From the NCBI GenBank assembly GCA_025935815.1, contig JAICUO010000006.1:1-36938 (forward strand): a DNA stretch of 36,938 bases. The letters are read 5' to 3'. Made by a program: the position numbers and the translations under genes. Origin of the DNA: Streptosporangiaceae bacterium. Its GTDB lineage: Bacteria; Actinomycetota; Actinomycetes; Streptosporangiales; Streptosporangiaceae. Shown here piece after piece: positions 5,013 through 30,141 of this stretch; within the stretch, counting starts at the first letter, position 1; each line of letters begins with the position of its first letter. A model generated the notes under the pieces. It made no database searches. It was not told where the DNA came from and worked only from the letters and a program-made list of their open reading frames with translations.

Positions 5013-5374
5013 TTGCGCAGGACCAACGCTGACCACCGCAGACGCCCGCCCCGTTACGCATAAGAGGCCGCGCGGATAGGTGATGCGGCGCCCATCCTGG
5101 CTTCCGGCGCACCGCGGGTCACAACAAAGCCGGGGCAGGCGGCGCTGGCGCCGACTCCTCGCTGAATCTCTCAAGGGAACTAAATGGCACGTCTTTGCGG
5201 CACCAGCCCGGCTCGAAGACGATCGGTCGAGTTTGTGTCCCGGCGGCCCCCGATCACATGCGGCACCGTTAGTGCGTTGCTACCCCGTCGTTCTCATGTG
5301 CTGACAGGAATCAAAAACTTCTCGTTCCGCCTGCAGTGCCGTCTGCGTTGCGCCGGGACTGTACGGAACCTAGC

Positions 5375-5422
5375 CTCGGAAATGCACGTTGAAGTTCTGT
5401 TGCGCTCATGTCGCACCGGGCT
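5375..5422 (+). repeat. 48-nt imperfect direct repeat, copy 2
   Basis: ctcggaaatgcacgttgaagttctgttgcgctcatgtcgcaccgggct; ends 32 nt upstream of the likely SARP start codon at 5454. Confidence 0.7.
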
Positions 5423-5453
5423 CGACGAGGGGCGTGCTGTCCAGGAGAACGGA

Positions 5454-8400
5454 ATGTGGTTCGCGATCTTGGGACCATTGCTGGTCCATGACGGGGAAAT
5501 GCAGGTTAATGTGCCGAAAGGGCGGCAGCGTGTGCTGCTCGCGGCCCTGCTGGTGCATGCTGGAGAGCCGGTTTCGGCCGACTCGCTTGCCGAGGTGGTG
5601 TGGGACGGAGCGCCTTCGTCCGGTGCCGAGGTCACGCTGCGATCCCATGTGCTCCGGCTCCGCCGCGCGCTGGGACCATATGCCGGAGCCCGGCTGGTGA
5701 CCCGGCACCCTGGTTACCTCCTCCAGGCCAGTGAAGACGAAGCCGACGTGCTCCGGTTCCGCCGCCTGTGTCAGGACGGCGGAACCGCGCTGCGGGAGAG
5801 AGCCTGGTGGCGCGCAGACGGGCTGCTCGGTGAGGCACTGAACTTGTGGCGTGGCACACCCCTGGCCGACATCCCGTCCGAATCGTTGCACCGGGACCAG
5901 GTGCAGGGTCTGGAGGAGCTGCGACTGCAGGCCGAGGAATGGCGGACCGACGCCGCTCTGCACCTGGGTCGCCACGCCGAGCTGGTGCCCAGGCTGCAGT
6001 CCCTGGCTGCCGGGCATCCGCTGCGGGAACGCTTTCACTCCCAGCTCATGCTCGCCCTCTACCGGTGCGGCCGTCAGGCGGAGGCACTGGCCGTCTACCA
6101 GCGCGCCCGCGACGTCCTCGTCGGGGAACTCGGCGTCGAGCCGGGACCTGGCCTGCGGGACCTGCACCAGCGGATACTGTCCGCCGACGCGGACCTGGAC
6201 ATCACCAGCCCGGTACGCTCCGCGGAGGCCGGACCTCAGCGGGCCGTGCCGCGGGAACTGCCGCCGGCGGTGCCAGGATTCACCGGCCGTTCGGATGAAC
6301 TCTCGGCGCTGTCCCGGCTGCTGGACCGGCCAGATGAGCAGGCTCCCGGAGCCGTCGTGATCTCAGCGATCGGCGGGACCGCCGGAGTCGGCAAGACCGC
6401 GCTGGCGGTGCAGTGGGCGCACCAGGCCACCGGGAGTTTCCCCGACGGGCAGCTCTACGTGAACCTGCGCGGCTACGACCCCGGCCAGCCGATGCCTGCC
6501 ACGGACGCGCTCGCTGGGTTCTTGCGCTCGCTGGGCGTAGCTGGCTCCGAGATCCCGCCAGATGAAGAGGAGCGTACCGCCCGCTACCGCAGCCTGCTGG
6601 CCGGCAAACGGCTGTTGGTCGTGCTGGACAACGCCGGATCAGCCGATCAGATCAGGCCGCTGCTGCCCGGCACCCGGGCCTGCGCTGTGGTGGTCACCAG
6701 CCGGGGCACACTCGCCGGGCTGGTGGCCAGGGACGGCGCTGCCCGCTTGAACCTCGGCGTGCTCCCGCAGCAGGACGCGGTCGCCCTGCTGCGAACGCTG
6801 ATCGGCGCGCGGGTGGACGCCGAACCTGAGGCATCCGCCGAGTTGGCCGACCAGTGTTGCCGACTCCCGCTCGCGCTGCGGGTGGCCGCCGAGTTCGCCG
6901 CCAGCCATCCGGCTGCCACACTGACCGGGCTGGCCGACGAGCTGACCGACCTGCGCACCCGGCTGGACCGGCTGGCCGCCGACGGTGACCCTCGCACCCA
7001 GGTGCGGACCGTGTTCTCCTGGTCCTACCGCCACCTCGACGCCGATGCCGCCCGGACCTTCCGGCTGCTGGGCCTACACCCCGGCCCCGACCTCGACCCG
7101 TACGCCGCCGCGGCCCTCACTGACACGGCGATGCCACAGGCCACGCGGGCGCTAGACGTGCTATCGCGCGCGCACCTGATCCAGCCTGCCGCACCGGGCC
7201 GGTACGGCATGCACGACTTGCTCCGCGCCTACGCCCGCGAACTCACCGCTGACCTGGACACCAGTCAGGAGCAGCACGCGGCGCTGACCCGCCTATTCGA
7301 CCACTACCTGCACACCGCTATGACGGCGATGGACGCGCAGTTCCCCACCGACCACCACCGCCGTCCCCTCATCCCCCGGCCGACTACCCCGGTCCCGCCG
7401 CTGACCGATCCCGCTGCGGCACGGGAATGGCTGGATGCCGAACGCACCGTTCTGGTGGCGGCCGCTGGGCACACCGCCGCCCACGGCTGGACCGGCCACG
7501 CCACGCGGCTAGCCGCCACCCTCGCCAGTTACCTTCACAGCGGCGACTGCATCCCCGAAGCCCTCACCATTTATGGCCACGCGCTCGGTGCCGCTCGCGG
7601 CAGCGGTGACCACGCTGCCGAGGCGACGGCCCTCAAAAACATCGGCAACGTCGAGTTGCAGCAAAGCCGCCTTGAGCAGGCCGGTGACCACCATCGCCAG
7701 GCGCTGGCCCTGTTCCGTGAGATAGGCGACCGATCCGGTGAGGCGCGCACGCTGGGAAGCATAGGCCTTGGTGAAACCAGCCTGGGCCGATACGAGCAGG
7801 CCGGACGCCATCAGCAGGAAGCTGTCGCCATCTTCCGTGACATCGGCGACCGTGTCGGCGAGTCACGCGCGCTCGGCAATCTCGGCCTAGTCCGGCAACG
7901 GGAAGGCCGCTATCAGGAGGCTGCCGACCATCACAAGCAGTCCCTGGACCTGTCCCGCGAGTTCGGCGATGGTCAGGGCGAAGCCTGGGCACTGGCCAGG
8001 CTCGGCTTTGTTGACCTGCGGCTGGGCCGCTTGCAGCACGCGGCCGGCTACCTCCAGCAGGCCATCGCCATGTTCCATGAAATGGGTAGTACAAGCGGCG
8101 TAGCCGAGAACCTGGTGAGGCTCGGCGACGTTTATGTGGAGCTCGGCCGCTACGAGCAAGCTGCCGGGAACTTTGAGCAGGCCCTGGCCATGTTCCGCGA
8201 GATCGGCGATCCGATCATGGAGTCCGATGCGCTCAACGGCCTCGGGGAGGTTCTCTTCCGGACAGGTGATCTCGATCAGGCACGCGCGCACCACGCCACC
8301 GCACTCCGGCGCGCATCCGAGGTCAGCGCGCCACGTCACCAAGCACGCGCGCACAGCGGCCTCGCCCGCGTCTACCAGGCCTGCGGCGATTCTCTCCGGA

Positions 8401-8615
8401 CCCGGCACCACTGGCAGGAAGCCCTCACTCGCTACGAGGCCATCGGCTCCCCCGAGGCCGACGAAATCCACGCCCGCCTCGACAAGGCCAGTGACAGCGA
8501 CGACGATCAGCCGGGGTTATGCCCGGGGCGTCCGAGTAGGTCCTGCTGGGTAGTGGCGATAGCCGCTCCAGGGCACGATTACGCGCGATGGCTGCTGGGA
8601 GGCGGTCCAGGCTAG
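5454..8615 (+). CDS. SARP-BTAD-NB-ARC-TPR (AfsR-type) transcriptional regulator
   Basis: ATG at 5454 with AGGAG upstream; MWFAILGPLLVHDGEMQVNVPKGRQRVLLAALLVHAGEPVSADSLAEVVWDG (SARP wHTH), BTAD, Walker A GGTAGVGKTALAVQWAH (NB-ARC), and at least six C-terminal TPR units (e.g. GRYEQAGRHQQEAVAIFRDIGDRVGESRALGNLGLVRQREGRYQEA). Confidence 0.9.
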   Translation: MWFAILGPLLVHDGEMQVNVPKGRQRVLLAALLVHAGEPVSADSLAEVVWDGAPSSGAEVTLRSHVLRLRRALGPYAGARLVTRHPGYLLQASEDEADVLRFRRLCQDGGTALRERAWWRADGLLGEALNLWRGTPLADIPSESLHRDQVQGLEELRLQAEEWRTDAALHLGRHAELVPRLQSLAAGHPLRERFHSQLMLALYRCGRQAEALAVYQRARDVLVGELGVEPGPGLRDLHQRILSADADLDITSPVRSAEAGPQRAVPRELPPAVPGFTGRSDELSALSRLLDRPDEQAPGAVVISAIGGTAGVGKTALAVQWAHQATGSFPDGQLYVNLRGYDPGQPMPATDALAGFLRSLGVAGSEIPPDEEERTARYRSLLAGKRLLVVLDNAGSADQIRPLLPGTRACAVVVTSRGTLAGLVARDGAARLNLGVLPQQDAVALLRTLIGARVDAEPEASAELADQCCRLPLALRVAAEFAASHPAATLTGLADELTDLRTRLDRLAADGDPRTQVRTVFSWSYRHLDADAARTFRLLGLHPGPDLDPYAAAALTDTAMPQATRALDVLSRAHLIQPAAPGRYGMHDLLRAYARELTADLDTSQEQHAALTRLFDHYLHTAMTAMDAQFPTDHHRRPLIPRPTTPVPPLTDPAAAREWLDAERTVLVAAAGHTAAHGWTGHATRLAATLASYLHSGDCIPEALTIYGHALGAARGSGDHAAEATALKNIGNVELQQSRLEQAGDHHRQALALFREIGDRSGEARTLGSIGLGETSLGRYEQAGRHQQEAVAIFRDIGDRVGESRALGNLGLVRQREGRYQEAADHHKQSLDLSREFGDGQGEAWALARLGFVDLRLGRLQHAAGYLQQAIAMFHEMGSTSGVAENLVRLGDVYVELGRYEQAAGNFEQALAMFREIGDPIMESDALNGLGEVLFRTGDLDQARAHHATALRRASEVSAPRHQARAHSGLARVYQACGDSLRTRHHWQEALTRYEAIGSPEADEIHARLDKASDSDDDQPGLCPGRPSRSCWVVAIAAPGHDYARWLLGGGPG

Positions 8616-8793: not shown

Positions 8794-9570
8794 TCAATCC
8801 TCCGCGCGCCGAAGTACTACGCGATCCCCTTCGTCGCGGAACAAGCTGGCGAGGGCCTGCCCTAGGGCTTCGTCGTCGCGGACGTCTAGCCAGCATGCGA
8901 TGCGCCCATGGTCGCTGAGCGCGCCCCGCAGGATCTGGTAGGCACGCGGCAGCGGGGGCACGCTGGTATTCGTGACCACGAGAAGTCGAGCCCCGGCGGG
9001 CAGCGCCGAAAGCAGGGTGGGCAGCGTGCTCCCACCGAACGGGTTGCTCGGGTCGGTGCGCCACTTGGTCTCAACGAACAGTGCGGCCCCCTGATACCGG
9101 ATGATGAAGTCCGGAGAGGCACGGCTGCGGGTGTCCAGCGCGATGATCTCGACCCCGGGGAGAAGTCGGCTGATGGCGGCCATGACCGCTAGGTCATAGG
9201 CCTCGGCGGGATGGATGGGAACGGAACCGGTTTTCTGCAAGACAGCGAGCCGGTCCCGGAGGTTTATCAGCTCGCGGAGAGCCACCTCGCCGTCATCGTC
9301 TTGCTGGGCGACGCGAATCTGAGTCGCCATCGTCTGATCGATGCTTTCCCACGAGATCTCGTTCCCGGATACCGTGAGCCGGGATGGCCAGCGCCCGATG
9401 AGGCCGAGTGTGCTTGTGAGGGCGCCCGTGATGATGAGCGCGGCGGCTCCCGCGCCATTGCCGCCGCTGAGGAACGCAGCGGCACCTCCTGCCCCCCAGG
9501 ACGCCAGGCCCGCGACCAGCAACCCGACCCGGTAGTGGCGGCCGATCATCCGGCTTGCCCCCTGACCCAT
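8794..9570 (-). CDS. Membrane-anchored PD-(D/E)XK nuclease-like protein
   Basis: 258 aa; two N-terminal hydrophobic segments (VGLLVAGLASWGAGGAAAFL; GAAALIITGALTSTLGLIG) then SPDFIIRYQGAALFVETKWR, a D-Xn-ExK core typical of restriction-endonuclease-like folds. Confidence 0.6.
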   Translation of the reverse strand: MGQGASRMIGRHYRVGLLVAGLASWGAGGAAAFLSGGNGAGAAALIITGALTSTLGLIGRWPSRLTVSGNEISWESIDQTMATQIRVAQQDDDGEVALRELINLRDRLAVLQKTGSVPIHPAEAYDLAVMAAISRLLPGVEIIALDTRSRASPDFIIRYQGAALFVETKWRTDPSNPFGGSTLPTLLSALPAGARLLVVTNTSVPPLPRAYQILRGALSDHGRIACWLDVRDDEALGQALASLFRDEGDRVVLRRAED

Positions 9571-10206: not shown

Positions 10207-11838
10207 TTATCCCCGCACTCTCGTCTGGCTGACCATCTTTGCTAGCCTCTCGGTCTCGGCGGCGTCGATCACGCCCTCGACGAACGCCTCCAGGGTGAGT
10301 TCCTTGCGTGAGCGGGGCTCGTGCGCGATGACCGTCAGCCGCCCGTCGACGGAGATCCGCAGCGTGACCTGGATGACAGCGCCGGCAGGCAGCTTGCTGA
10401 GGCCGGTGAGCTCGCCGTCCAGCACCCGACGGTTGTGCTCGACCTCCGGGGAGAGCACGGCCCCGGACTGCTCGTACACCTGGATCCGGACCGATCCCTG
10501 ATTGGGCACGATGGTACCGAAGCGGTGCTCTGTCTGGTCGACCGGCAGCGGCGTGTTAGCCGTCACCATGTGCGCGATGAAGGCACGCTTGCCCTCGGGA
10601 TCATTGCTGTCCTCGATGCGGATGCCGACCGCGCGCGGCGTTACCGGGGTGATGGCGCCCGGGCCGCCGGGCAGGCCGCGCAACCATCCGGCGGAAGCCG
10701 CGGGGCCGCCACCCCGGGAATGGCTCGCTGCGTGCCGTGCGGTAAGGGCGGACATCTGCGCGGAGCCTACCAGGTGGTGCGCGCGCAGGGCGGCGCCCTT
10801 GGCCACGGCCAGATCCGGGTCGATCAGCTGGGGAACCTTGCCGAACAGGTCGGCGAGCCGCTGCCCGAGAACCGGGATGCGGCTCGACCCGCCCACCATG
10901 ATGATCTCGTCGATGTGATTGCCGCTGTTACCGGCGGCCCGCAGGACCCGCTCGATGATCTCCGACGTCGTCTGGTAGAGGTCCGAGCAGGCGGCGTCCA
11001 GGTCGGCGCGGTCGATCGTCACCGCGGCCCGACCGCGCGGGGTCCGCACCGAGATCTCCCGGGAGGTCACCTTGCTCAGGTCCTTCTTGGCCGCCTCGAC
11101 ATCCAGCGCGAGATCGGCCAGCCACGCCTGATCATCGATGAGGTCGTCCAGTTCCTCGGACGGCAGGATCTCGCCGAACCGCTCGGTAACCAGGTCGAGC
11201 AGCCGCCGGTCCACGTCCGCGCCGCCTAGCTCGTGGTGACCGTCGGTGGCCAGGACCCGGACCGCGCCGTCGACGATCCGCAGCACCGTGGTGTCGAAGG
11301 TGCCGCCGCCGAGGTCGTAAACGAGGATCGTCCGGTTCCCGCCGGTGGTCAGCCCATAGTGGGTGGCGGCCGCGACCGGCTCGTCGAGCAGTTCCAGGAC
11401 GTCCAGACCGGCGAGCACGCCCGCCTGATGGGTGGCCTCGCGCTCGGCCATGCCGAAGTACGCGGGCACGGTGATGACCGCGCTGACCTTCTCGTCTTGC
11501 GCTGGCCCGCCGCCCGTACCGGTGGCCGCGCTGACCAGCTGTCGCAGGATCAGCGCGGAGATGGATTCCGGGGTGTGCTGCTGCCCCCGGATGTCCAGCG
11601 GAAACTCGCTGCCCATGTACCGCTTGACCAGCCGGACACCGTTGTCCGGATCGAACGCGGCATCGCGGACTGCCTCGGTACCGACGAGCGCGGTGCCGTC
11701 CGCCTCGAAGTACACGACCGAAGGGGTGATCTGGCCGCCGTCCGCGTTGGGCAAGATCGCGACCACGCCGCTGTCGTCGACCGTGGCGACGACTGAGTTC
11801 GTCGTCCCGAGGTCAATCCCGATCACTCGGTGACTCAT
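10207..11838 (-). CDS. Hsp70 family protein (543 aa)
   Basis: VIGIDLGTTNSVVATVD, VPAYFGMAEREATHQAGVLAGLDVLELLDEPVAAATHYG, ILVYDLGGGTFDTTVLRI, IIMVGGSSRIPVLGQRL; ends shortly after the beta substrate-binding domain. Confidence 0.95.
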   Translation of the reverse strand: MSHRVIGIDLGTTNSVVATVDDSGVVAILPNADGGQITPSVVYFEADGTALVGTEAVRDAAFDPDNGVRLVKRYMGSEFPLDIRGQQHTPESISALILRQLVSAATGTGGGPAQDEKVSAVITVPAYFGMAEREATHQAGVLAGLDVLELLDEPVAAATHYGLTTGGNRTILVYDLGGGTFDTTVLRIVDGAVRVLATDGHHELGGADVDRRLLDLVTERFGEILPSEELDDLIDDQAWLADLALDVEAAKKDLSKVTSREISVRTPRGRAAVTIDRADLDAACSDLYQTTSEIIERVLRAAGNSGNHIDEIIMVGGSSRIPVLGQRLADLFGKVPQLIDPDLAVAKGAALRAHHLVGSAQMSALTARHAASHSRGGGPAASAGWLRGLPGGPGAITPVTPRAVGIRIEDSNDPEGKRAFIAHMVTANTPLPVDQTEHRFGTIVPNQGSVRIQVYEQSGAVLSPEVEHNRRVLDGELTGLSKLPAGAVIQVTLRISVDGRLTVIAHEPRSRKELTLEAFVEGVIDAAETERLAKMVSQTRVRG

Positions 11839-11963
11839 CAGGCCCCTTTGACCAGCGCGGCCAGCGAGCCAAGCGCGTCGCCGAGCAGCAGGAGGAGGAT
11901 GAAGGCCAGCGTTATGGCCACGCTGACGGTGCGGAAAGCGGTGATGTACTGCGGGGTTTTCAT
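11838..11963 (-). CDS. 41-aa single-pass membrane microprotein (not in supplied ORF track)
   Basis: Hand translation: MKTPQYITAFRTVSVAITLAFILLLLLGDALGSLAALVKGA*. ATG overlaps the upstream GTPase stop (ATGA, 11960-11963) and its TGA overlaps the Hsp70 ATG (TGATG, 11836-11840). Confidence 0.7.
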   Translation of the reverse strand: MKTPQYITAFRTVSVAITLAFILLLLLGDALGSLAALVKGA

Positions 11964-13609
11964 GCGGATGCTCCTACAGGCCGCCGGGCGGGCTTGGCCA
12001 GGAGTGCGTCGCCGCCTGGCACCTTGACTCCGTGCGCGGCCAGCAGCCAGCGCAGCGGGACGCCGGGGTCATGCGCCCGGCCAATGGAGACGCCGAGCGA
12101 CGCAACGGTGAAGTACCGCACCTCGCGGAACTCGCGGGGGGCACCCATGGTCACGTTGTGGACCCCGTTGCTGGCTAGCCACCGGGCGATGTCACCGGAA
12201 TCGAAGGGGACCGCGAGGCCCGCGCCGCTGAGCAGGTCGGCCTTGGACACGATGACCGCGAGGCGCTGCGACTCGACCGGCACCCCCAGGCCGCGCAGCT
12301 GCGTCAGGACTTCGGTGTAGGAGACCTCCGGATCCATGCCTGCGATCGTCACCCGCGACAGCAGTGACGGGTCGCGGGACGCGGCCTGCTCGCGGATCGA
12401 GTCGACCGAGAACGGGTCCAGCACGTAGGCTAGGGCCTGGCCGTCTTCCAGGAACCGCAGAGAGCCGGCGTTCGTCTCCTGGTTGCCGTACCCCAGGGTC
12501 CAGTTTCCTGGGTTGCTGAACTGCTCGCCGGCCGCGTCGAACAGGTGGATGAAGTCCGCGTGGGTGCCCTCGCGCAGCCTCATGCTGATAGCAGTGGCGG
12601 GACCGTCCTGGGTCTTGTCGACCTTGTCGGCCTGCATCCGGCTGATCCAGTCCTCGGCCGTCTTCCGCGAAGGCTCGTCGAGGTATTCCCACTTCACGCG
12701 CGCGCGGTCAAGGTCCTGCTGCAGGCTATTGAGCGAGGAATACAGGAAGCGGGTCTTGCCTGCCGCCACCGCACCGAAGATCGGCACCCGGATGTCGCGC
12801 ACCGCGCCCGTCCCGTCGGGCAGCTCTTGCTGGCACTCCGCTCGCTTGCAGACGGCCCGCGTGTGCCAGGCCGCACGCGACGGCAAGGTGGGGAAGGTCG
12901 TGCCGCACCGGCCGCACTTACGGAAGAACGTGCCCAGGTCACTTGGCATGACGTCGTGGTGCCGCTCGCCGCACGTACGGCAGGCGTAGGCCGGCCAGGG
13001 GGTCACGTGCAGGCACTTCATGCAGGCGGCAGCGGTGTGCTTGCCCTTGCGGCGCCTGCCTTCACGGGCTCGCAGCTGCCCGCGCAGCACCGCTATGACC
13101 GTGTGGTCAAGCCACCAGCTCGCGGTCAGCAGGCCCCAGTACACCCAGTAGGAGGCCCATGAGACGAGGAAGGCTCCGCCCAGGAAGGACAGCACCGAGA
13201 CCGGCACCGGGAAGAGCAAGACCCACCAGGGCCAGCGGTGCTTGCCGTACCGGCGCTTGAAGAAGGTGTTGACCGGCCACGTCCACAGCCGCTTGTGGTA
13301 CGCGAGGAGGTTGGCCCGGACGGCCTTCTTGTCGATCCCGGCTTGCCGGAACGTGTAGAGCGGCCAGGCCAGGTCCGGAGGGAACTCACCCGGCCGGGGA
13401 ACCGGAACGCCCAGCCTTTTTGTCTCTGCCTGCAGCTTCTCGTCCTGGTACTGCTTGGGCTGGTAGAGCATGGACGGCAGGAACTGCTGGGGATTCTTGG
13501 CCTGCCCCCACAGGGTGAGCCAGAATGTCCGGGCGATCATGAAGAACCCGAAGAACAGGCCCGCCTGCAGCGCGATTAGATAGAAGTTGCCCAAAAGGAA
13601 ACGGATCAT
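11960..13609 (-). CDS. TRAFAC-clade GTPase-like protein with N-terminal TM segments and zinc ribbons (double-GTPase type)
   Basis: 549 aa; TM segments (LIALQAGLFFGFFMIARTFWLTLW; WWVLLFPVPVSVLSFLGGAFLVSWASYWVYWGLL), Cys clusters (CMKCLHV..CRTCGERH, CGRCGTTFP..CKRAEC), G1 GAVAAGKTR, G3-like FIHLFDAAGE, G4-like VIVSKADLL. Confidence 0.8.
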   Translation of the reverse strand: MIRFLLGNFYLIALQAGLFFGFFMIARTFWLTLWGQAKNPQQFLPSMLYQPKQYQDEKLQAETKRLGVPVPRPGEFPPDLAWPLYTFRQAGIDKKAVRANLLAYHKRLWTWPVNTFFKRRYGKHRWPWWVLLFPVPVSVLSFLGGAFLVSWASYWVYWGLLTASWWLDHTVIAVLRGQLRAREGRRRKGKHTAAACMKCLHVTPWPAYACRTCGERHHDVMPSDLGTFFRKCGRCGTTFPTLPSRAAWHTRAVCKRAECQQELPDGTGAVRDIRVPIFGAVAAGKTRFLYSSLNSLQQDLDRARVKWEYLDEPSRKTAEDWISRMQADKVDKTQDGPATAISMRLREGTHADFIHLFDAAGEQFSNPGNWTLGYGNQETNAGSLRFLEDGQALAYVLDPFSVDSIREQAASRDPSLLSRVTIAGMDPEVSYTEVLTQLRGLGVPVESQRLAVIVSKADLLSGAGLAVPFDSGDIARWLASNGVHNVTMGAPREFREVRYFTVASLGVSIGRAHDPGVPLRWLLAAHGVKVPGGDALLAKPARRPVGASA

Positions 13610-13612
13610 CGG

Positions 13613-16057
13613 TTAACTCCGGAAGGTCCAGGTAAGGCCCCCATGCCTGGGGAACAGCGCTTCCCACTGATCGCGCAGTCCATCGCGCCCGAGCCGCTCG
13701 CCTACCTCGGCCCGCCACTTGTCCGCGCTCTTGCCGCCACTGGCGGCGCTGATCACGCTCGGGAACTGGCGGATCTCCCTGGCCACCATTTCCCGCCTTC
13801 GGCTCGGCATGTCCGGGTGCGTGTAGATATGGAAGAGCCACAACGCGCACTGCACCCGGTCCTCCGGGTCCTTTAGCTCGCCGAACCGAGTGCCGGCCAG
13901 GGCGATTAGCGCCCCGACCGGCGACTGTTTCCCCCGGGCGGGAAACCGCGCGAACGTATCCGCCGCGAGGTCTGGGTCCCGGCTGAGGGCTTCGACCACC
14001 TCGTCCGCCCGGAGCCGCACCACGGCCGGGCTCGCTTCGCAGACGAGCTTGATGGCCGTGCTCCGCATGCGCTGCTCGTGGATCTTGTCCCCGGAGGTGA
14101 TGTCGAGGAAGCGCGTGAGCTTCCGGTTGCCGTCGGCAAGGTCGGCCAGCTCCGGCGATCCGCTCGGGACCCGGTCGCCCAGGCTGGCCAGCACCGTGAG
14201 CAACTCCTGGTCCGGGTTGCGGGCCTTGTCCGCGAGCCAACTGCGCGCGTAGCCGTAGATCTCCGGGTTGACCTGGGATCCGGATACCTCCGTGATGATC
14301 GTGACGGCCACGGCCTCATTGACCGCGCCCCAGTCGAGCAGCGCCTCCTGCAGCTCGCGTACCGCCCGGGCGCCGAGATTAGCGTCCTTCCGCCGTAGCC
14401 TGCTGGCCGACGCCAGCAGGCTACGCAGGTACGCGATCTTCCTGTCAGCGGTCAGGGCGCTGACCCGCACCGCCTGCAGCGGCCAGTACAGCACGTCGTC
14501 CGGGTCCTTTGCGGCGCCGAAGAACGAGGCGAGACGGCGCACCGTTTCCCGAACGCCCGGCGCCGACGGGACTTCGGCATACCGCTTGGCCAGCTCTGCC
14601 CGTGCTTCGTCGATGATCAGGACGCCCAGGGCCCAGGTCCGCGGGTCGCCCGGTTTTTCGCTGCTGAGCCAGGCCCACGCGAGCTCCGTCACGAATTTGC
14701 GTACCGACGGCGATGGCGGCTCGAGTGAGATCCCGTGCCGCCGGGCAAGCCGCAGCAGCCGGTCGGCCTCGGCCTGGTCGATCTTGCCGTCGGTGCCGCG
14801 AAGCAGCGCCGACGTAAGGGCGCTCTCGGCGTCCCGCCGGGTCTGGTCAGTGAGTGCGGCATTCGGCAGTCCCGCGTCCGGGATGGCGCCGTCGGCGAGC
14901 GCATCGCCGATCTCGCTGTCGAGCAGCCGCGTGCGGATGACATTGTGATCAAATTCCAGTTCCCCGGCGGTGACCTGCGCGTCCAACCAGCGCAGCAGGT
15001 CGCCTGGCGGTCGCCCGGGTCCGCTCAGCAGTGCCTCGGTGATGGCCGGGCCGTGCTCGCGCAGCAGTGCCTGGCTGGCTTGCCGGAGCCAGTTGGACAG
15101 CGCGGCCGGGTCGGTGGCCAGGTCATCCGGCCGGGTCAGCGTCCAGGCGGCCTGCAGCGCTGACGCGTCCCCCGGCTTCAGGCCCGCGCCCAGCGCGCTG
15201 GCCAGGTCGATGGCATCGACGATGTCGTACGGGTCGGCGTCGCCGGTCAGTTTGGCTACCAGGAACTCGGCCCGCGCGGTGGTGGCGGCCTCATCGCTGC
15301 GGCCGGTGGCGGCGTCCAGCACGAACACTCCCAGGCCGGCGCCCGGGCGCAGGTCCGGGTTCACCTCCGGCGTGGCCGCCACTACCCGCTGCTGGGCCCG
15401 CAGCGGGGCGCCACTGAATACCTTGAAGGACACCTGAAGCGCCTCGCGCTGCGCCAGCAGCAGCGTCGCGGCAGCGATCCACCGCATCGCCTCGTCCGCG
15501 TCGGCCGAGACGATAACCACCCGCTGGCCCTTGGGGTCCTCCAGGACGCTGAGCAGGCGAGCCAGCGCCGGGCCGCGCTCGACCTGCTCACGGGCCCAGT
15601 TGGTGACGGTTTCCAGGTTCAGCGGACCGATCTCCAGGTCACCGTCGAAGTCAGGGCAGTCCCGGGTCGGCCACGGGTCGGCCCGCCACAGCGGCGACTG
15701 CCACAGCTGGGCCGGCCGGATAGTCCCGTACCGCTCGGGGTCGCGGGTCAGCAGGCAGTCGGCGAGATGGTTTCCCATCCGGCCGCCGACCGCCTCCTTC
15801 CCGACGTACCGGCCCTGAGCGGTCCCGTATCCCTCGGCGCCGGCGTGGGCGAAGCCGGGCGGGAAGTCCGCCACCGGACGGCCCGCGGCCAACCATGCGT
15901 TCTGCACCTCATACAGTAGCCACCCGACCGCGAATGACGCCTGCTGGGAGTCCACGCCAGGCGACTGCGCCTGGACCTGGAAGCCGCCCCCCGCGCTGCG
16001 CCCGGTGCCCGGCGCGCAGTCGGTGTACAGCAGCCGGCCAAAGGCAGTCTCCGTCAC
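13613..16057 (-). CDS. GTPase-associated protein (GAP1-like)
   Basis: Likely GTG start at 16057 forming GTGA overlap with the GTPase stop; VTETAFGRLLYTDCAPGTGRSAGGGFQVQAQSPGVDSQQ at N-terminus matches my memory of GAP1-N families that accompany double GTPases; ~815 aa. Confidence 0.7.
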   Translation of the reverse strand: MTETAFGRLLYTDCAPGTGRSAGGGFQVQAQSPGVDSQQASFAVGWLLYEVQNAWLAAGRPVADFPPGFAHAGAEGYGTAQGRYVGKEAVGGRMGNHLADCLLTRDPERYGTIRPAQLWQSPLWRADPWPTRDCPDFDGDLEIGPLNLETVTNWAREQVERGPALARLLSVLEDPKGQRVVIVSADADEAMRWIAAATLLLAQREALQVSFKVFSGAPLRAQQRVVAATPEVNPDLRPGAGLGVFVLDAATGRSDEAATTARAEFLVAKLTGDADPYDIVDAIDLASALGAGLKPGDASALQAAWTLTRPDDLATDPAALSNWLRQASQALLREHGPAITEALLSGPGRPPGDLLRWLDAQVTAGELEFDHNVIRTRLLDSEIGDALADGAIPDAGLPNAALTDQTRRDAESALTSALLRGTDGKIDQAEADRLLRLARRHGISLEPPSPSVRKFVTELAWAWLSSEKPGDPRTWALGVLIIDEARAELAKRYAEVPSAPGVRETVRRLASFFGAAKDPDDVLYWPLQAVRVSALTADRKIAYLRSLLASASRLRRKDANLGARAVRELQEALLDWGAVNEAVAVTIITEVSGSQVNPEIYGYARSWLADKARNPDQELLTVLASLGDRVPSGSPELADLADGNRKLTRFLDITSGDKIHEQRMRSTAIKLVCEASPAVVRLRADEVVEALSRDPDLAADTFARFPARGKQSPVGALIALAGTRFGELKDPEDRVQCALWLFHIYTHPDMPSRRREMVAREIRQFPSVISAASGGKSADKWRAEVGERLGRDGLRDQWEALFPRHGGLTWTFRS

Positions 16058-17217
16058 TTCGGCTTCACCGCCTTCACCATCTTGGCCTTGGACATCAGCC
16101 ACAGGATCGGGTCCGCGACCCGGTGCGGCCGGACCCCGCCGGTGGCGACGTGAGCCTGGTCGTAATCTGGCTGGGCGCCGAGCGCGGACACCCCGAAGTA
16201 GCGGTAGTTCGCGTAGTTCCGGCTGATGTGGCGGTCAATCTCCTCGGCGTCCCACTCCTTGAGCAGCATTCGCATCTGCTCGTGGACGGCCAGCCCGTCG
16301 CCCTCGTCGTAGGTCGTTCCGGACGGGGCTTTCGCCAGCAGCGGGTCGCTCTCCTCCAGCCCGGGGAAGAAGGAATCCATCTTGGTGAACACGAACGCCA
16401 CGTGAGTGGACAGCAGTTTTCCGCCCTTGAGCCGGTTGTGCGTCCGGAGCTGCTCGGTGACCTGTTCCAGGGCCTGCAGCGCGGCGTTGTCGGTCGTGCT
16501 CTGCAGCGCCTTCGGCGGCAGGTTGATCGAGGACCGCGCACCCGGCAGCGAGAACGGGTCGAGGGCCACGATGAGGTAGTCGCAGGCGTGCAGGTAGCGG
16601 ACCGCGGACACGTTCTCTCCGGAGGTGAAGTCCTCACCCGCGCTGTCGAGGAACGCCAGCATCGTGGACCTGCGGTCGGCCCGCCAGCGCAAGACGATGG
16701 GTATTCGCCCGTCCGCCTCGAACGTCCCGGTGCCTCCCGGGAGGGTTCCCGTCTGGTAGATGGCCTGCTCCCGCTGCCGCATATAGTCGGCGATGCTATT
16801 CATGCCATCGGGGTTGTCGACGGCGATCGCGATGTCCGCGTTGAAGCGCTGCGCGATGACCTTCCGCAGTTGCTGGATCATGACCGTCATCAGCACGGTC
16901 TTGCCGGATCCCTTGGAGCCGACCATGCCGAGCATCGGGGTCTTGGTGTCCACGAAGTCGATGGACAGCCCGGTGTGGCACTTGGGGCAGGCGCGCCGCC
17001 GGGTCTCGCCCTGGCAGTTCCCGCATTTGGCGACGCCCTTGCGGACCGCCGCATCGGGGGGGAGGTACCGGCCAGACGCGACGCCGCTGCCGGTGATGTC
17101 GCGCCGGTCCGGGTCGATGAGCGGCGGGCACTTGATGTGCCCCTGGCGGGCACACAGGTAGCCGAGCTTGGATGAGTCGATCTCGTAAAAGCAGAACGGG
17201 CAGGTAGTGCGAGCCAC
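16054..17217 (-). CDS. TRAFAC-clade GTPase-like protein with zinc ribbons (partner GTPase)
   Basis: GTG start; CPFCFYEI, CGNCQGETRRRACPKCHTG ribbons; G1 GMVGSKGSGKTVLMT, G3-like FLDSAGED, G4 FVFTKMD. Confidence 0.85.
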   Translation of the reverse strand: MARTTCPFCFYEIDSSKLGYLCARQGHIKCPPLIDPDRRDITGSGVASGRYLPPDAAVRKGVAKCGNCQGETRRRACPKCHTGLSIDFVDTKTPMLGMVGSKGSGKTVLMTVMIQQLRKVIAQRFNADIAIAVDNPDGMNSIADYMRQREQAIYQTGTLPGGTGTFEADGRIPIVLRWRADRRSTMLAFLDSAGEDFTSGENVSAVRYLHACDYLIVALDPFSLPGARSSINLPPKALQSTTDNAALQALEQVTEQLRTHNRLKGGKLLSTHVAFVFTKMDSFFPGLEESDPLLAKAPSGTTYDEGDGLAVHEQMRMLLKEWDAEEIDRHISRNYANYRYFGVSALGAQPDYDQAHVATGGVRPHRVADPILWLMSKAKMVKAVKPK

Positions 17218-17220
17218 GCG

Positions 17221-19866
17221 TTAGTCCTCCTTCATGTCGCCCACGGGGGGGTCGACGAGCCTGCCGGGACCGCTCATGACGAAGCAGCGCACCCAGTAGG
17301 GCTTCTTGATGGTCTTGGGGAGCTCCGCCCGGTACTCGGCGGGCACTCCCGGGGTGAGGCTTAGCGTCGTCTCGAAGACGGTGACGCCCTCGGTCGGCCG
17401 GGTTGGCTTTATCGTGCCGGGCACGGCGATCAGCCGCACCGCGGTGCCGCCGCAAGGCTCGTCGGCGGTGAACGTCAGCTTCTTGGCGCGCCCGCTGAAG
17501 GGACCGCCGCCTGCCACCCGGTACCGGATCGCCGTCTTCATGACCTTGATGACGGTGTCCTTCACCGGCGCCGACGGGTAGCGCTTGCCGTTCGCGGTGA
17601 TCACGGCGCGGACCTCGATCTCAACTGGCCGCTGGCCCAGAGGGACCTGGGCGCCGCCCTTAGACTCGTACTCGGCCCGGCTGAGCACGTACGACTCCCA
17701 GTCGTCATCGCTGTCGCCTTGTGCCCGCCAGGAGACCTCGGCCAGCTGGACGGTTCCGGGCCAGTGCCAGGCGATGGACGCGTGATCCGCGAACGGGGTG
17801 GGGATGAGGTTGGTCACCGGGTCGATGATGGCCGTCGGCCGGGACCGCCCGACGGCGATACCGGTCCCGCCCACCGACACTGGCGTGAGGTAGTGCATGC
17901 CGCCGGGCAGCTCCACCTCCAGGGTTCGCTCCGCCCCTGATACCTCGACGTGCCCGGAGAGCATGGTGCCGCCCCGCCGGACCTCCTCGGGGGAGATCAC
18001 GGTCCCGTACGGCCACGGCTGGTCGCTGACCGTCTGCAGGATCCGGACCTCGGAGCTGTCGATCTGCTTCCAGCTCGCCCGCACCCGGGTCTGGCCGGCG
18101 GCCAGGGAGGTGGTGATCCGCAGGGTGTCGTTGGGCTTGGCCTCACCGCGGGGGGTCGCGGTGACCGTCCGCGGGAGCGAGCGCAGCTCCTCGCCCTCGG
18201 CCCCGCGGTAGACGGCCACCGCCGCGAAGAGCTGCGTGACCCCGTCCGGCAGGTCGGCGAGCTGCACGCTGCTGCCACTCACCGGGACCTCGACCGGTGG
18301 AGCGCCGCCGGCGGCACCGGAGGGGGAGCGGGTCACCATCACGCGCGCTTCCGGCTTGGCCTGCCAGTGCAGCGACACGGTGCCGATTCCCGTTTCGGCC
18401 CTCAGGTTCCACACCGGGGGCTTGGCCGTCACTGTGACGCTGCCGGCTCGCGACGGCGTCCGGCCCTCGGTGGTCGCGAACACCCCGTACTGAACTGGTC
18501 TGCCCGCGGGCGCGGCGGAGTCCGCGCACTCGACCTCGGCCCCCCGGTACACCGGGGTCCCGTCGCCAGGAGCGGCCGGAGCGCGGCCCTCGGTCCGCGC
18601 CACGACGTAGACAACGGACTCGTCATGCCCCGGTCCCCGCTGCCAGAACACCTTGACACTCTCGGCGTCGCCGGTCGCGGAGACAGCGCCAGGCGGGGCC
18701 AGCGGCAGCTGGCGCAGCAGGTCCTCCGCGTCGGAGAGGCTGATCCGCCTGGCAGCTTGCAGGTACTTTTCGGCCTCAGCCTCATCCGATGCCTGCCGGG
18801 CAGCCTCGGCCTTGGCCAGCAGCGCGCCCAGCTCCTGCTTGCTGGCTGCGATCAGTTTGACCAGGTCGGACTTATCGTCACCATCAGGCAGCGCGGCGGC
18901 CTGGCCCTCGGCCTCCTTCAACTGCCCGTCCGCCAGCAGTTTCCGGACCTGGTCAGCCAGGTTGACCTGGGTCGCCTTCTGGCGCCCGTCGAGCAGGGCC
19001 GCGATGATGGCGGCGTCGGTCGCCTCGACCCCGAGTCCCGCCAGCTCGCGCTTGGCCGCGGGCGGCGGGGCGTTCTTGACCAGGTCCACCAGGTGGCAGA
19101 GGGCCACCGCGTCCAGGTTGACGCCGCCGCCCAGCGCGTTGCTGAGCGTCGCCAGCGCCTCGCCCTTGGCGGTGGTGACGGGGTTGATGGCCTTCCCGGT
19201 GGCTTCCTTCTGCTCGCTGATCGCCTCTTTGTCGAGCCGCAGGGCTGGCTTGCCGGTGCAGGCATACCGCTCGACGATCTTGAACGTCCCCGATCCCGGG
19301 TGAAGCAGCTCGGGGATCGTTTTTACCTGTGCTTCCCTGAGCTTCTGGGTAAGGTTGTTGAACTGGACCGTGTTGATCGGGGGCTGCTCGGGGAGCTGCA
19401 CCTTCTCGTCGACGACGATCAGGCCGGCCTGCCGGGCTGCTGAGATAGCGTGCTCGGCGGACAGTCCTTGCAGGCTGCCGTAGGCGGCCGCGTTCCTGGC
19501 CGTCACCGCGCCGAGGCTGGCGTAGTCCTCGCGCAGGCTGACGGTGAGGCGCTGCACGGCCGCCTCCGCCTGCTTCGCCTCCGCTGCTGCCCGCTGCTGC
19601 CACCAGGCGATGGTCTCCAGCTGGCCGCCAAGCCTGGCCTTAAGCTCGCCGTCCCGGTCCTTGCACCACTTGGCGGTCTTGGCGAACCTGGCGTTCCCGT
19701 TGGCATGCTGGTTCCAGAACGCGCGGACCGCCTTGACCTGGGCCGCGATCTGCTCATTGGTGGTCGGAAGCGTGATCGCGTACCGTTCCAGCAGGTCTTC
19801 CGGGTTGGTCCCGGCCTTGCTGTGCCGGGTCAGGGTGGCCTTGTAGGCTTCCTTGTCGAACTGCAT
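17221..19866 (-). CDS. Large protein with helical N-terminus and multiple C-terminal Fn3-like domains
   Basis: 881 aa; Ala/Lys/Glu-rich helical first ~430 aa, then repeated beta-sandwich-like modules (VKVFWQRG...PVQYGVFATTEGRTPSRAGSVTVT; VSLHWQAKPEARVMVTRSPSG...; VRASWKQIDSSEVRILQT...; IAWHWPGTVQLAEVSWR...). Confidence 0.6.
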   Translation of the reverse strand: MQFDKEAYKATLTRHSKAGTNPEDLLERYAITLPTTNEQIAAQVKAVRAFWNQHANGNARFAKTAKWCKDRDGELKARLGGQLETIAWWQQRAAAEAKQAEAAVQRLTVSLREDYASLGAVTARNAAAYGSLQGLSAEHAISAARQAGLIVVDEKVQLPEQPPINTVQFNNLTQKLREAQVKTIPELLHPGSGTFKIVERYACTGKPALRLDKEAISEQKEATGKAINPVTTAKGEALATLSNALGGGVNLDAVALCHLVDLVKNAPPPAAKRELAGLGVEATDAAIIAALLDGRQKATQVNLADQVRKLLADGQLKEAEGQAAALPDGDDKSDLVKLIAASKQELGALLAKAEAARQASDEAEAEKYLQAARRISLSDAEDLLRQLPLAPPGAVSATGDAESVKVFWQRGPGHDESVVYVVARTEGRAPAAPGDGTPVYRGAEVECADSAAPAGRPVQYGVFATTEGRTPSRAGSVTVTAKPPVWNLRAETGIGTVSLHWQAKPEARVMVTRSPSGAAGGAPPVEVPVSGSSVQLADLPDGVTQLFAAVAVYRGAEGEELRSLPRTVTATPRGEAKPNDTLRITTSLAAGQTRVRASWKQIDSSEVRILQTVSDQPWPYGTVISPEEVRRGGTMLSGHVEVSGAERTLEVELPGGMHYLTPVSVGGTGIAVGRSRPTAIIDPVTNLIPTPFADHASIAWHWPGTVQLAEVSWRAQGDSDDDWESYVLSRAEYESKGGAQVPLGQRPVEIEVRAVITANGKRYPSAPVKDTVIKVMKTAIRYRVAGGGPFSGRAKKLTFTADEPCGGTAVRLIAVPGTIKPTRPTEGVTVFETTLSLTPGVPAEYRAELPKTIKKPYWVRCFVMSGPGRLVDPPVGDMKED

Positions 19867-19875
19867 GGGCGCCGC

Positions 19876-21564
19876 CTACATGCCCTTGCGAAGCGCGGAG
19901 ACGATGGCCTTCTCCTGGGCGACCTGCTCGTCTGACATGATGGCGATCTTGACCGACATCTTCAGCTCCTTACCGCTGGTCGGCTCGACCGCGAGCAGGT
20001 TGACGGTGCCCTCAGCGTCGACGTCGAAGGTGATGTCGATTGGCGAGCCGGCCGGCAGCCGGAACGATCCAAGGCCCTCGATGAGGCCCGCGTTGTCGAC
20101 CCGGTGGTTGGCTGAAAGCGCCGTGCCGGGAACGGCCCCGGCCTGCTCCCAGATCTCGATCTCAATCGTCTGCTGGTTAGCCCGCATCGTGCCGGCGGTG
20201 AACTTCTCGGCCTGGTACGGGAGCTGGGTCTGCGCGTGGACCATGTGCTCGACGTAGAACCTTTCCTCATCGGAAAGTGAGTCCCAGTCCGGCTTGTCGT
20301 CGGCCAGCTTGATGCCCACCGCCTTGGGCAGCACGTTGACGATCGTCTTGGTGAGCTTCTCGACCTGCTTGGGATCCAGCCCGGTGTCCGCGGCGACGGC
20401 CGCGATGGCCGCCGGGCCGGGCAGGGACCGGGTGCGCCCGGTGCCCTCCGCGGGGGCATCGCCGGCTTCCGCCTCGACCAGCCGGACCGTCTGCCCGGCC
20501 GCGTACAAGGCGGCACCCTTGGCCACCGCGAGGTCAGGGTCAGCCAGCTTCGGCTCCCACGAGTACTCCTTGCGGAGCCGCTCGGCCACGGCGGGCATCT
20601 TGCTCGACCCGCCGACCAGCAGGAGGTCGGTGATCTGGCCGAGCACGCCGGGGAAGCGCTCCTCCGCCTTGTCCAGCATCCGGCTGGTGATGGTGACGGT
20701 CGCCTCCAGCAAGTCGGAGGTCATCTCCGCGAACTGCTCGCGGGTCACGGAGATCGAGGTCGCCATGCCGCCGGCCAGGCGGTGGTTGACCTTCTTGGAC
20801 TCGGCCTTGGTCAGCGCCTTCTTGGTCTCCTCAGCCAGCCGGCGCAGCTCCTGCAGGGTGGCCTCGTCGTCGTTGATGGAGTCGTCGCCGGTCTGCTCGA
20901 CGGTCTGGTCCTTGAGGTAGTCGAATAGCCGGGCATCCCAGTCAGCGCCGCCGAGCTTGTGGTCCCCGTCGACCGCGAGGACCTCCACCGAGGTGTCGGT
21001 CATCTTGATCAGCGTGATGTCGAAGGTGCCACCGCCCAGGTCGTAGACCAGGAATGTGGTACCGTCCCCGCTGCCGGTGACCCCGTAGGCCAGGGCGGCG
21101 GCGACCGGCTCGGGGACGATCCCGATGACCTCAAGGCCGGCGATCTCGCCGGCCTTTTTGGTGGCGTCCTTCTCCAGCAGCCCGAAGTAGGCCGGCACGG
21201 TGATGACCGCCTGCTTCACCGGACGGTGAGTCTCCTCCTCAGCGCTCTTGGCCAGCGCCGCGAGGATGATCCCGGATATGCCGGACGGAGACAGTTCCTG
21301 TCCGTAGAAGCTGCGGGAGTAGTCCTTGTTGCCCATCTCACGCTTGATCAGCGAGACGACATCATCGGGGCGGAACCCCGCCGCCTCCTTGGCTGTCTTG
21401 CCGACGACGGTGTTATCCGCCGTCTCGAAGTACACCACGGACGGGGTCGTGTCCTCGCCGTCTGTGTTGCGGACAACCGCCGGGCGGCCTGTCTCGTCGA
21501 TGTAGGCCACCACCGAGTAGGTGGTGCCGAGGTCGATGCCGTAGATGCCCTGCTGCTCGCTCAC
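19876..21564 (-). CDS. Hsp70 family protein (562 aa)
   Basis: GTG start; IYGIDLGTTYSVVAYIDETG, VPAYFGLLEKDATKKAGEIAGLEVIGIVPEPVAAALAYG, FLVYDLGGGTFDITLIKM, LLLVGGSSKMPAVAERL. Confidence 0.95.
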   Translation of the reverse strand: MSEQQGIYGIDLGTTYSVVAYIDETGRPAVVRNTDGEDTTPSVVYFETADNTVVGKTAKEAAGFRPDDVVSLIKREMGNKDYSRSFYGQELSPSGISGIILAALAKSAEEETHRPVKQAVITVPAYFGLLEKDATKKAGEIAGLEVIGIVPEPVAAALAYGVTGSGDGTTFLVYDLGGGTFDITLIKMTDTSVEVLAVDGDHKLGGADWDARLFDYLKDQTVEQTGDDSINDDEATLQELRRLAEETKKALTKAESKKVNHRLAGGMATSISVTREQFAEMTSDLLEATVTITSRMLDKAEERFPGVLGQITDLLLVGGSSKMPAVAERLRKEYSWEPKLADPDLAVAKGAALYAAGQTVRLVEAEAGDAPAEGTGRTRSLPGPAAIAAVAADTGLDPKQVEKLTKTIVNVLPKAVGIKLADDKPDWDSLSDEERFYVEHMVHAQTQLPYQAEKFTAGTMRANQQTIEIEIWEQAGAVPGTALSANHRVDNAGLIEGLGSFRLPAGSPIDITFDVDAEGTVNLLAVEPTSGKELKMSVKIAIMSDEQVAQEKAIVSALRKGM

Positions 21565-22289
21565 TGCTCTTCCTTCGCGGCCATGAAAACGGTGACTTCG
21601 GCGGGCGCCAGCGGGCTGTCCGACTCGATGTCCAGGTAGCCGGGCTGCCGCACGGCGGCGACGAGCCCGGCCTGGGCCGGGTCGGTGCTGGGCTGGCGCT
21701 TGACCTGACGGTGCCGGCGTGGGTTGAAGGGATCCCCCTCATCTGGCTGGTACATGATGACGCCGTTGTCCTCCAGCGCTTCCCCGAGCGTGTCGGTGTA
21801 GGACTGCAGCAGCCGGACGGCCTTAGCGGCATCAAAGTCTGGCGGCAGGGTCGCGGCCTGCCTCACGAGGTCAGCATGCAAGCGGCACATCTGCGTCAGG
21901 AGCGGGCGCAGCAGGCCGCGACGCTCTCCCCGGCGCAGCAACTCAAGCTCTGACCGCAGGTAATCAATCACGCGCTCGCGCTGCTGCGCCCGGTCGTGAT
22001 AGTGCCCGGCCGAGTCGGCCAGGTCGCGGAGCACCGCCGAGATCTCAGGATCGGCGGGTGCGGGAACCGCTGTCCCCGTGTCCCGCAGCGCGCCGGACGG
22101 CTGTGCGGAACTAGACGGCTGTGCGGGCGGCGTGACGCCTGCGGGGCTATCCGCGTGGGGAAATTCAGGATGATCGAATTCACCGGCCGTGGTGCTGGTC
22201 AACGAGTTTTCGACCGAATCTAGCTCCGGTGCCACCGGCGCCTCCTCAACGATTTTTGGGCACGGCGAATGAGCACCGCGATAATCCAC
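21561..22289 (-). CDS. GrpE-like nucleotide exchange factor (left arm)
   Basis: 242 aa; RAQQRERVIDYLRSELELLRRGERRGLLRPLLTQMCRLHADLVRQ...LLQSYTDTLGEALEDNGVIMYQPDEGDPFNPRRHRQV; GTGA overlap with downstream Hsp70; disordered N-terminal ~80 aa. Confidence 0.7.
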   Translation of the reverse strand: MDYRGAHSPCPKIVEEAPVAPELDSVENSLTSTTAGEFDHPEFPHADSPAGVTPPAQPSSSAQPSGALRDTGTAVPAPADPEISAVLRDLADSAGHYHDRAQQRERVIDYLRSELELLRRGERRGLLRPLLTQMCRLHADLVRQAATLPPDFDAAKAVRLLQSYTDTLGEALEDNGVIMYQPDEGDPFNPRRHRQVKRQPSTDPAQAGLVAAVRQPGYLDIESDSPLAPAEVTVFMAAKEEQ

Positions 22290-23206: not shown

Positions 23207-23791
23207 GTGACGGACGATGCAACCGTTGCCAAAAACGAAGGGCAAGTGGCCGCAGTGCCAGCTGGCCTGCTACTCGAGGCTGTTAGATCTCTGCACGACG
23301 CAATGCAGGACCTGGCCGCTCAGGTTGCCAATGAGCATGACCGGGCGAAAGCGCGTGAGGCGGTCATCGACCGGCTGCACGAGGAGACCCAGCGGCTGCG
23401 CGCAGGGGAGGGCCGTGAATTGCTCCGGCCTGTGCTGTCTGACCTGCGAAAACTCCGCGATGACCTGCAAGGCCAGGCCCGGTCGGTTCCGGGGGTAATG
23501 TCGAACGCCAATGTAGCGGCCCTCCTCGATTCCTACGCCGACAGTGTGGAGCTGATCCTGGAGCGGAATGGCGTCATGGCGGTCCGCCCGAAGCCGGACG
23601 CGCCGTTTGACCCGCGCCGGCATCGCGCTGCCGGGATAGCGGCCGCCTCTGAGCAGGGACTCGATGGGATGATCGCGACGGTGCTGAACGACGGCTACGA
23701 GGACACGCAGACCGGCTCGGTGATCGCGCCAGCCAGGGTCATCGTCTACCGGCACACGGGCGCCGGAGGACCAGACGGTCGGGACGGCTGA
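23207..23791 (+). CDS. GrpE-like nucleotide exchange factor (right arm)
   Basis: 194 aa; EHDRAKAREAVIDRLHEETQRLRAGEGRELLRPVLSDLRKLRDDLQGQ...LLDSYADSVELILERNGVMAVRPKPDAPFDPRRHRA; alignable by eye with the left-arm GrpE-like protein including the PF(D/N)PRRHR segment. Confidence 0.75.
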   Translation: MTDDATVAKNEGQVAAVPAGLLLEAVRSLHDAMQDLAAQVANEHDRAKAREAVIDRLHEETQRLRAGEGRELLRPVLSDLRKLRDDLQGQARSVPGVMSNANVAALLDSYADSVELILERNGVMAVRPKPDAPFDPRRHRAAGIAAASEQGLDGMIATVLNDGYEDTQTGSVIAPARVIVYRHTGAGGPDGRDG

Positions 23792-23796
23792 GCGCC

Positions 23797-27798: not shown

Positions 27799-27841
27799 GC
27801 CAGGACCTGGAGAGATCAGGGACAGGGAGATAAGGGGAGAC

Positions 27842-30140: not shown

Positions 30141-30141
30141 C

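What the first reader, a model, noticed from the sequence alone, without database searches (positions are those of the whole stretch)
11838..11963. Overlooked 41-aa transmembrane microprotein locked between GTPase and Hsp70 by two stop-start overlaps
MKTPQYITAFRTVSVAITLAFILLLLLGDALGSLAALVKGA is below the ORF track threshold but its ATG overlaps the GTPase stop (ATGA) and its TGA overlaps the Hsp70 ATG (TGATG). Such double coupling is hard to explain unless it is translated. A single hydrophobic helix in a suspected death system could be a pore, membrane anchor or holin-like trigger, or a regulator of the TM-containing GTPase.
Basis: seen in the sequence. Interest (0 to 1): 0.75.

Follow-up and report, generated by a model that had tools for sequence, protein, structure and literature searches.

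The report
Detached membrane helix of a GTPase
A 41-amino-acid open reading frame hidden between two genes of a predicted bacterial defence operon is very probably a real, widely conserved gene that makes, as a separate small protein, the membrane helix which related bacteria carry fused to the end of the neighbouring GTPase, so it looks like an overlooked subunit rather than a toxin.

Summary
Confirmed on the minus strand (11963-11838): a 41-aa ORF with one strong TM helix. It starts in an ATGA overlap with the DO-GTPase2 stop, has an AGGAG ribosome site 7 nt upstream, and ends in a TGATG overlap with Hsp70. The operon is the GAP1-N2 / Hsp70-GrpE type of double-GTPase conflict system (Kaur et al. 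2020). Across 147 membrane-type DO-GTPases from several actinobacterial families, 66 carry a C-terminal TM helix fused to the GTPase. 74 lack it but have a separate TM micro-ORF just downstream, most often at -4 with a strong Shine-Dalgarno. Only one clade of 7 has neither. Controls: 0 of 524 other genes have a TM ORF at -4, and 0 of 65 soluble GTPase paralogues have one nearby. Fused tails and micro-proteins share a juxtamembrane arginine motif and align as profiles (E 5e-6; controls at least 0.1). On a rooted tree the fused form arises once and the separate gene looks ancestral. Best explanation: the micro-ORF encodes a dedicated N-in/C-out membrane subunit, the 'C-terminal helix' of the GTPase supplied in trans. 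Toxin, holin, chance-ORF and degenerate-fragment readings fit worse. Direct binding and function are inferred, not shown.

The parts
11838..11963 (-). Micro-gene: 41-aa single-pass membrane protein, detached C-terminal TM helix of the DO-GTPase
11871..11927 (-). Predicted TM helix of the micro-protein (residues 13-31); preceded by juxtamembrane FR (F10 R11), comparable to the Y-x3-R[R/W] motif of homologues; positive-inside rule suggests N-in/C-out
   Evidence: hydropathy; motif; topology inferred
11971..11975 (-). Shine-Dalgarno AGGAG inside the end of the GTPase gene, 7 nt from the micro-gene ATG
   Evidence: sequence
11960..11963 (-). ATGA stop-start overlap, GTPase/micro-gene (offset -4)
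11836..11840 (-). TGATG stop-start overlap, micro-gene/Hsp70
11843..11849 (-). Purine-rich AAAGGGG, likely ribosome site of Hsp70, inside the micro-gene
   Evidence: sequence (-7.5 kcal/mol)
11960..13609 (-). Membrane DO-GTPase2 (549 aa): N-terminal TM helices, zinc-ribbon cysteines, GTPase domain, no C-terminal TM
   Evidence: (PF19993)
10207..11838 (-). Hsp70 family protein (543 aa)
   Evidence: PF00012
9574..10203 (-). VWA domain protein (209 aa)
8794..9570 (-). 258-aa protein with two hydrophobic segments and a PD...ETK motif; candidate effector
   Evidence: sequence; no Pfam, PDB or PADLOC hit; nuclease reading is inference
13613..16102 (-). GAP1 (GAP1-N2 and GAP1-M domains)
   Evidence: PF20013, PF20014
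16054..17217 (-). Second, soluble DO-GTPase2 (387 aa, no TM); no TM micro-gene follows this paralogue in any of 65 homologues
17221..19866 (-). 881-aa conserved system protein of unknown domains, at the place expected for the FNIII-type variable component
19876..21564 (-). Hsp70 (562 aa)
21561..22289 (-). GrpE

Best explanation
The micro-ORF is a genuine gene for a dedicated membrane subunit of the GAP1-N2-type DO-GTPase conflict system. It encodes, as a separate single-pass (N-in/C-out) protein, the helix that in other actinobacteria forms the C-terminal TM segment of the membrane DO-GTPase. It is co-translated with the GTPase by stop-start coupling and its own Shine-Dalgarno. Most likely the helix packs in trans with the GTPase's N-terminal TM helices, so that the two together form the complete membrane domain that anchors the switch and links it to the cell surface. 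Shown by comparison: conservation, position, exclusivity with the fused helix, shared motif at family level, a single fusion/fission event. Inferred: translation in this organism, topology, direct binding, signalling role.
For: (1) Census: of 99 membrane DO-GTPases from the window's own bacterial family, 62 have a fused C-terminal TM (58 in an intact frame; L074 and L123 fused but frameshifted in the record; L111 and L127 with a further C-terminal domain) and 37 instead have a downstream TM micro-ORF; none has neither. Wider actinobacterial genomes add 37 split, 4 fused and 7 neither. 19 of 19 loci from a separate collection, mostly named Nocardiopsis, have it at -4 (these overlap the first set). 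(2) Controls: 0 of 65 soluble DO-GTPase paralogues, 0 of 156 other genes of the same operons, 0 of 524 background genes with a TM ORF at -4 and 3 of 524 within -30..+60. (3) Shared signature: an R[RWKTSCGL] pair just before the helix in 100% of fused tails and 84% of micro-proteins, against 4-17% of the N-terminal TMs; profile-profile alignment fused vs split 86% probability, E 4.7e-6, colinear, with all N-terminal-TM controls at E 0.1 or worse. (4) Tree rooted on soluble paralogues: fused = one clade (62 rows, support 100), one change. (5) Selection: pN/pS 0.61 in frame (p = 0.002), 1.05-1.11 in the shifted frames. (6) Strong Shine-Dalgarno in homologues. (7) Closest relative L031/L002 (GTPase 49% identical over the matched part) has the same TM-GTPase - micro - Hsp70 - VWA order, and its micro-protein aligns with the window's (M[KR]TPxxIxx[FY]R[ST]VxxxIT).
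Against: The window's own 41-aa sequence alone does not score above its shuffles against the fused-tail profile (0.2 bits); its link runs through position, L031 and the family profile. One Streptomyces-like clade (7 loci, L132 and L155-L160) has neither form, so the helix is dispensable in some settings. Purifying selection is weak, as may be expected for a TM helix. No structure or interaction data: AF2 of the GTPase alone is mediocre (pLDDT 69) and no complex could be modelled.
Confidence: 0.82

Rival explanations
1. The micro-protein is the effector: a small pore-former or holin-like toxin released or activated by the GTPase switch.
For: Single hydrophobic helix in a predicted conflict system; small TM toxins exist; other systems of this type use SLATT pore-forming effectors (PMC7159879).
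Against: It is constant rather than variable, is fused to the GTPase switch in 66 homologues, lies at the same place whatever the other genes, and carries C-terminal extensions in some lineages (L184, L186).
Confidence: 0.06
2. The overlap is a frameshift site: the micro-ORF is reached by -1 slippage from the GTPase, giving a minority GTPase-TM fusion protein.
For: In 40 of 72 split loci the micro-ORF starts in the -1 frame at the overlap, and a fused form exists in nature.
Against: Many split loci have gaps of +7 to +66 nt and one of +279, where slippage at an overlap cannot give a fusion; a strong Shine-Dalgarno precedes the start codon.
Confidence: 0.06
3. It is a decayed remnant of a C-terminal tail cut off by a recent frameshift.
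For: Position and resemblance to the fused tail.
Against: Split forms span several families and are paraphyletic to one fused clade; the reading frame is kept with pN/pS below 1; start codons and ribosome sites are maintained.
Confidence: 0.03
4. It is a chance ORF, or a leader that only couples translation of Hsp70 to the GTPase.
For: 57 of 524 control genes have some small ORF at -4.
Against: None of those is a TM ORF; the micro-gene is present where no homologue of the second Hsp70 was found downstream (for example L033, L034 and L039, and L215 and L221).
Confidence: 0.03

Closest known systems
GAP1-N2-type GTPase-centric conflict systems, HSP70/GrpE theme (Kaur, Burroughs and Aravind 2020, eLife 9:e52696, PMC7159879)
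   Same: DO-GTPase2 pair, GAP1-N2/GAP1-M, Hsp70, GrpE; [quoted passage not shown]
   Different: Here, and in 73 homologues, the C-terminal helix is not part of the GTPase but a separate micro-gene, which the passages read do not mention.
C-terminal TM segment of fused membrane DO-GTPases (for example loci L043, L066, L067)
   Same: Same place after the GTPase domain, same juxtamembrane arginine motif, similar helix.
   Different: Fused in one protein; in the split form the linker is replaced by a stop-start junction or a short gap.
Small single-TM accessory subunits of membrane complexes in general (own knowledge)
   Same: Works like a small accessory membrane subunit encoded beside its partner.
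   Different: No sequence relation tested or claimed.

Membership tests
GAP1-N2 DO-GTPase system, HSP70/GrpE theme | DO-GTPase2 domain, two paralogues, one membrane-bound | tested here: met
   PF19993 in both; TM helices only in 11960-13609
GAP1-N2 DO-GTPase system, HSP70/GrpE theme | GAP1-N2 plus GAP1-M protein | tested here: met
   PF20013 4e-21 and PF20014 7e-15
GAP1-N2 DO-GTPase system, HSP70/GrpE theme | HSP70 and GrpE genes in the neighbourhood | tested here: met
GAP1-N2 DO-GTPase system, HSP70/GrpE theme | FNIII-repeat protein fused to DnaJ or TPR | tested here: inconclusive
   881-aa protein at the expected place has no confident Pfam match
GAP1-N2 DO-GTPase system, HSP70/GrpE theme | Membrane GTPase with one C-terminal TM helix (usual, not defining for the whole system) | tested here: not met
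   Absent in cis; a separate micro-gene supplies a TM helix in trans
Detached C-terminal helix family (this work) | Small TM ORF directly 3' of a membrane DO-GTPase lacking a C-terminal TM | tested here: met
Detached C-terminal helix family (this work) | Juxtamembrane Y-x3-R[R/W] motif and profile similarity | tested here: inconclusive
   Family level met; window sequence alone not above shuffles; window motif is Y-x4-R-T
Holin / small pore-forming toxin | Lytic or toxic membrane permeabilisation | not testable with these tools
   needs expression
Holin / small pore-forming toxin | Match to a known holin or toxin family | tested here: not met
   No Pfam, NCBIfam or PADLOC match; PHROGs not searched

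The most novel reading that the evidence does not exclude
A previously unrecognised, ancestral micro-protein subunit is a core part of membrane DO-GTPase conflict systems across actinobacteria: the GTPase's membrane sensor/anchor is a two-chain assembly, and the single-chain form described so far is a derived gene fusion.
Probability: 0.6. Interest if true: 0.65.

Novelty: new variant of a known kind. Interest (0 to 1): 0.55.

Why it matters
It adds a missing component to a widespread class of predicted bacterial immune/cell-death switches for which the papers found here give no experimental test. Anyone reconstituting such a system from genes above the usual size threshold would leave this subunit out wherever it is separate (74 of 147 surveyed cases) and could wrongly conclude that the GTPase is inactive or mislocalised. 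The natural fused and split forms give a direct interaction hypothesis and ready-made chimeras for testing. It is also a clear example of how comparison with fused homologues can find sub-50-aa genes.

Tried and rejected
An HMM of fused tails separates single micro-proteins from controls only moderately (AUC 0.70-0.83) and does not place the window's own sequence; replaced by profile-profile comparison with controls. The 'exceptions' of the first census were resolved: L104 and L114 are fused with a weak or displaced helix (tails), L074 and L123 fused but frameshifted in the record, L111 and L127 fused with an extra C-terminal domain, and the long L062 ORF is a soluble paralogue (L062 also has a true split pair). 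L169 and L184 looked empty but have the micro-gene at +279 or as an extended version. The micro-gene was not found elsewhere in five loci of the clade lacking it that were fetched at 20 kb (L210-L214). Plasmid records hold no relative, so public annotation of the micro-gene could not be checked. A whole-genome background count was not possible; related loci were used instead. The supplementary tables of Kaur et al. could not be read.

Full report
OBSERVATION. The 41-aa ORF is real and lies on the minus strand, 11963-11838. Its ATG overlaps the stop of the upstream 549-aa gene (ATGA) and its TGA shares a base with the ATG of the downstream 543-aa gene (TGATG). An AGGAG ribosome-binding site sits 7 nt before the ATG, within the upstream gene. 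Residues 13-31 are strongly hydrophobic.

CONTEXT. Pfam identifies, in transcription order: GrpE (22289-21561), Hsp70 (21564-19876), an 881-aa protein (19866-17221), a soluble DO-GTPase2 (17217-16054), GAP1 with GAP1-N2 and GAP1-M (16102-13613), a membrane DO-GTPase2 (13609-11960), the micro-ORF, a second Hsp70 (11838-10207), a VWA protein (10203-9574) and a 258-aa protein (9570-8794). This is the GAP1-N2-type, HSP70/GrpE-theme GTPase-centric conflict system described from sequence by Kaur et al. 2020 (PMC7159879). That paper notes that where two GTPases occur, one has four N-terminal TM helices and one C-terminal TM helix. The window's GTPase lacks the C-terminal one, which suggested that the micro-ORF might be it.

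COMPARISON. A search of 347 genomes of the same order gave 149 genomes with relatives; 100 loci were fetched. Operon order is conserved. Of 99 membrane DO-GTPases, 62 carry a C-terminal TM helix and 37 do not; all 37 of the latter are followed by a TM micro-ORF, 26 of them starting exactly at -4. One of the fused loci (L048) also has a small TM ORF nearby, probably by chance. Soluble paralogues (65) and 156 other operon genes have none. In a larger background, 0 of 524 other genes have a TM ORF at -4 and 3 have one within -30..+60. Beyond the family, Streptomyces-like genomes and others add 37 split cases and one clade of 7 with neither; 4 more fused cases come from the window's own family and partly repeat genomes already sampled. 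Loci from a separate collection, mostly named Nocardiopsis species plus a Streptomonospora, a Glycomyces record and one MAG, all have the micro-ORF at -4; they largely duplicate genomes already counted.

SAME HELIX, TWO PACKAGINGS. Fused tails read like ...VPAGYQAGRWAVLAGLSVLT...; micro-proteins like ...EHRAARRTVAVVTYVLT......DPYRPWRLAVFVVV......TPHIARGRRLLFGLF.... Profile-profile alignment is colinear with 86% probability and E 4.7e-6, whereas every comparison with N-terminal TM helices of the same proteins gives E 0.1 or worse. The juxtamembrane arginine pair is present in 100% of fused tails and 84% of micro-proteins, but in 4-17% of N-terminal helices. The window's own sequence (QYITAFRTVSVAITL) is not separable from its shuffles in a single-sequence test; its membership rests on position, on its closest relative L031 (MRTPPHIVVYRSVISSITALIL) and on the family.

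HISTORY. On a tree of 95 membrane GTPases with the C-terminal tail removed from the fused ones, fused versus split needs one change. With 143 membrane GTPases and 16 soluble paralogues as outgroup, the fused proteins form one fully supported clade, the split state is spread over the other deep lineages, and the seven cases without either form one clade. By parsimony the separate micro-gene is ancestral and was fused once, but the basal forks are unresolved and several long branches are flagged, so one ancient fission is not excluded. The exclusivity of the two forms and the fusion itself (a Rosetta-stone pattern) point to physical association.

TRANSLATION. In frame, pN/pS is 0.61 over five independent pairs (p = 0.002), and 1.05-1.11 in the shifted frames. 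Median Shine-Dalgarno energy before the micro-ORF is -9.3 against -3.3 kcal/mol at control positions, p = 1e-22. The window's own site is -6.5.

MECHANISM (inferred). Arginines before the helix imply N-in/C-out topology by the positive-inside rule. The micro-protein then occupies the same topological place as the fused C-terminal helix, beyond which some lineages carry further domains on the far side of the membrane: L111 and L127 fused, L184 with an extended micro-protein, and the domains listed by Kaur et al.. The likeliest role is as a partner chain of the N-terminal TM helices of the GTPase, completing its membrane domain and possibly relaying surface events to the GTPase/GAP1 switch. AF2 of the window GTPase is consistent with a small-GTPase core (nearest folds Arl, Rab, EF-Tu) but has modest confidence in the membrane part; no complex could be modelled.

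VERDICT. Observation confirmed; interpretation partly supported (real gene, GTPase partner) and partly not (no sign of a toxin or holin). Novelty: a new variant of a known kind, a known fused helix shown to exist widely as a separate micro-gene. Whether public annotations already include it could not be checked, and the supplementary tables of Kaur et al. were not readable here.

Noticed in passing
window 8794-9570 (-): Last operon gene (258 aa): two hydrophobic segments and a C-terminal SPDFIIRYQGAALFVETKWR, resembling a PD-(D/E)XK nuclease motif; candidate membrane-associated nuclease effector. No Pfam, PDB or PADLOC match.
   Followed up: partly
window 23207-31571 (+): A second Hsp70-containing cluster on the other strand: GrpE, a 1333-aa CHAT-protease protein, Hsp70, a RES-domain protein and two unknowns; looks like a separate conflict system beside the first.
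   Followed up: no
window 5184-8615 (+): BTAD / NB-ARC / TPR regulator (1143 aa) next to the operon.
   Followed up: no
L184 (G1131), L186 (G1215): Micro-gene extended at its C-terminus (213 and 81 aa), suggesting an extracytoplasmic tail on the detached helix.
   Followed up: partly
L132, L155-L160: A Streptomyces-like clade of membrane DO-GTPases with neither fused nor detached C-terminal helix.
   Followed up: partly
L111, L127: Fused GTPases with a further domain of about 120 aa beyond the C-terminal TM (KYPxLxCSGxLTLEP), possibly an extracytoplasmic beta-rich domain.
   Followed up: no
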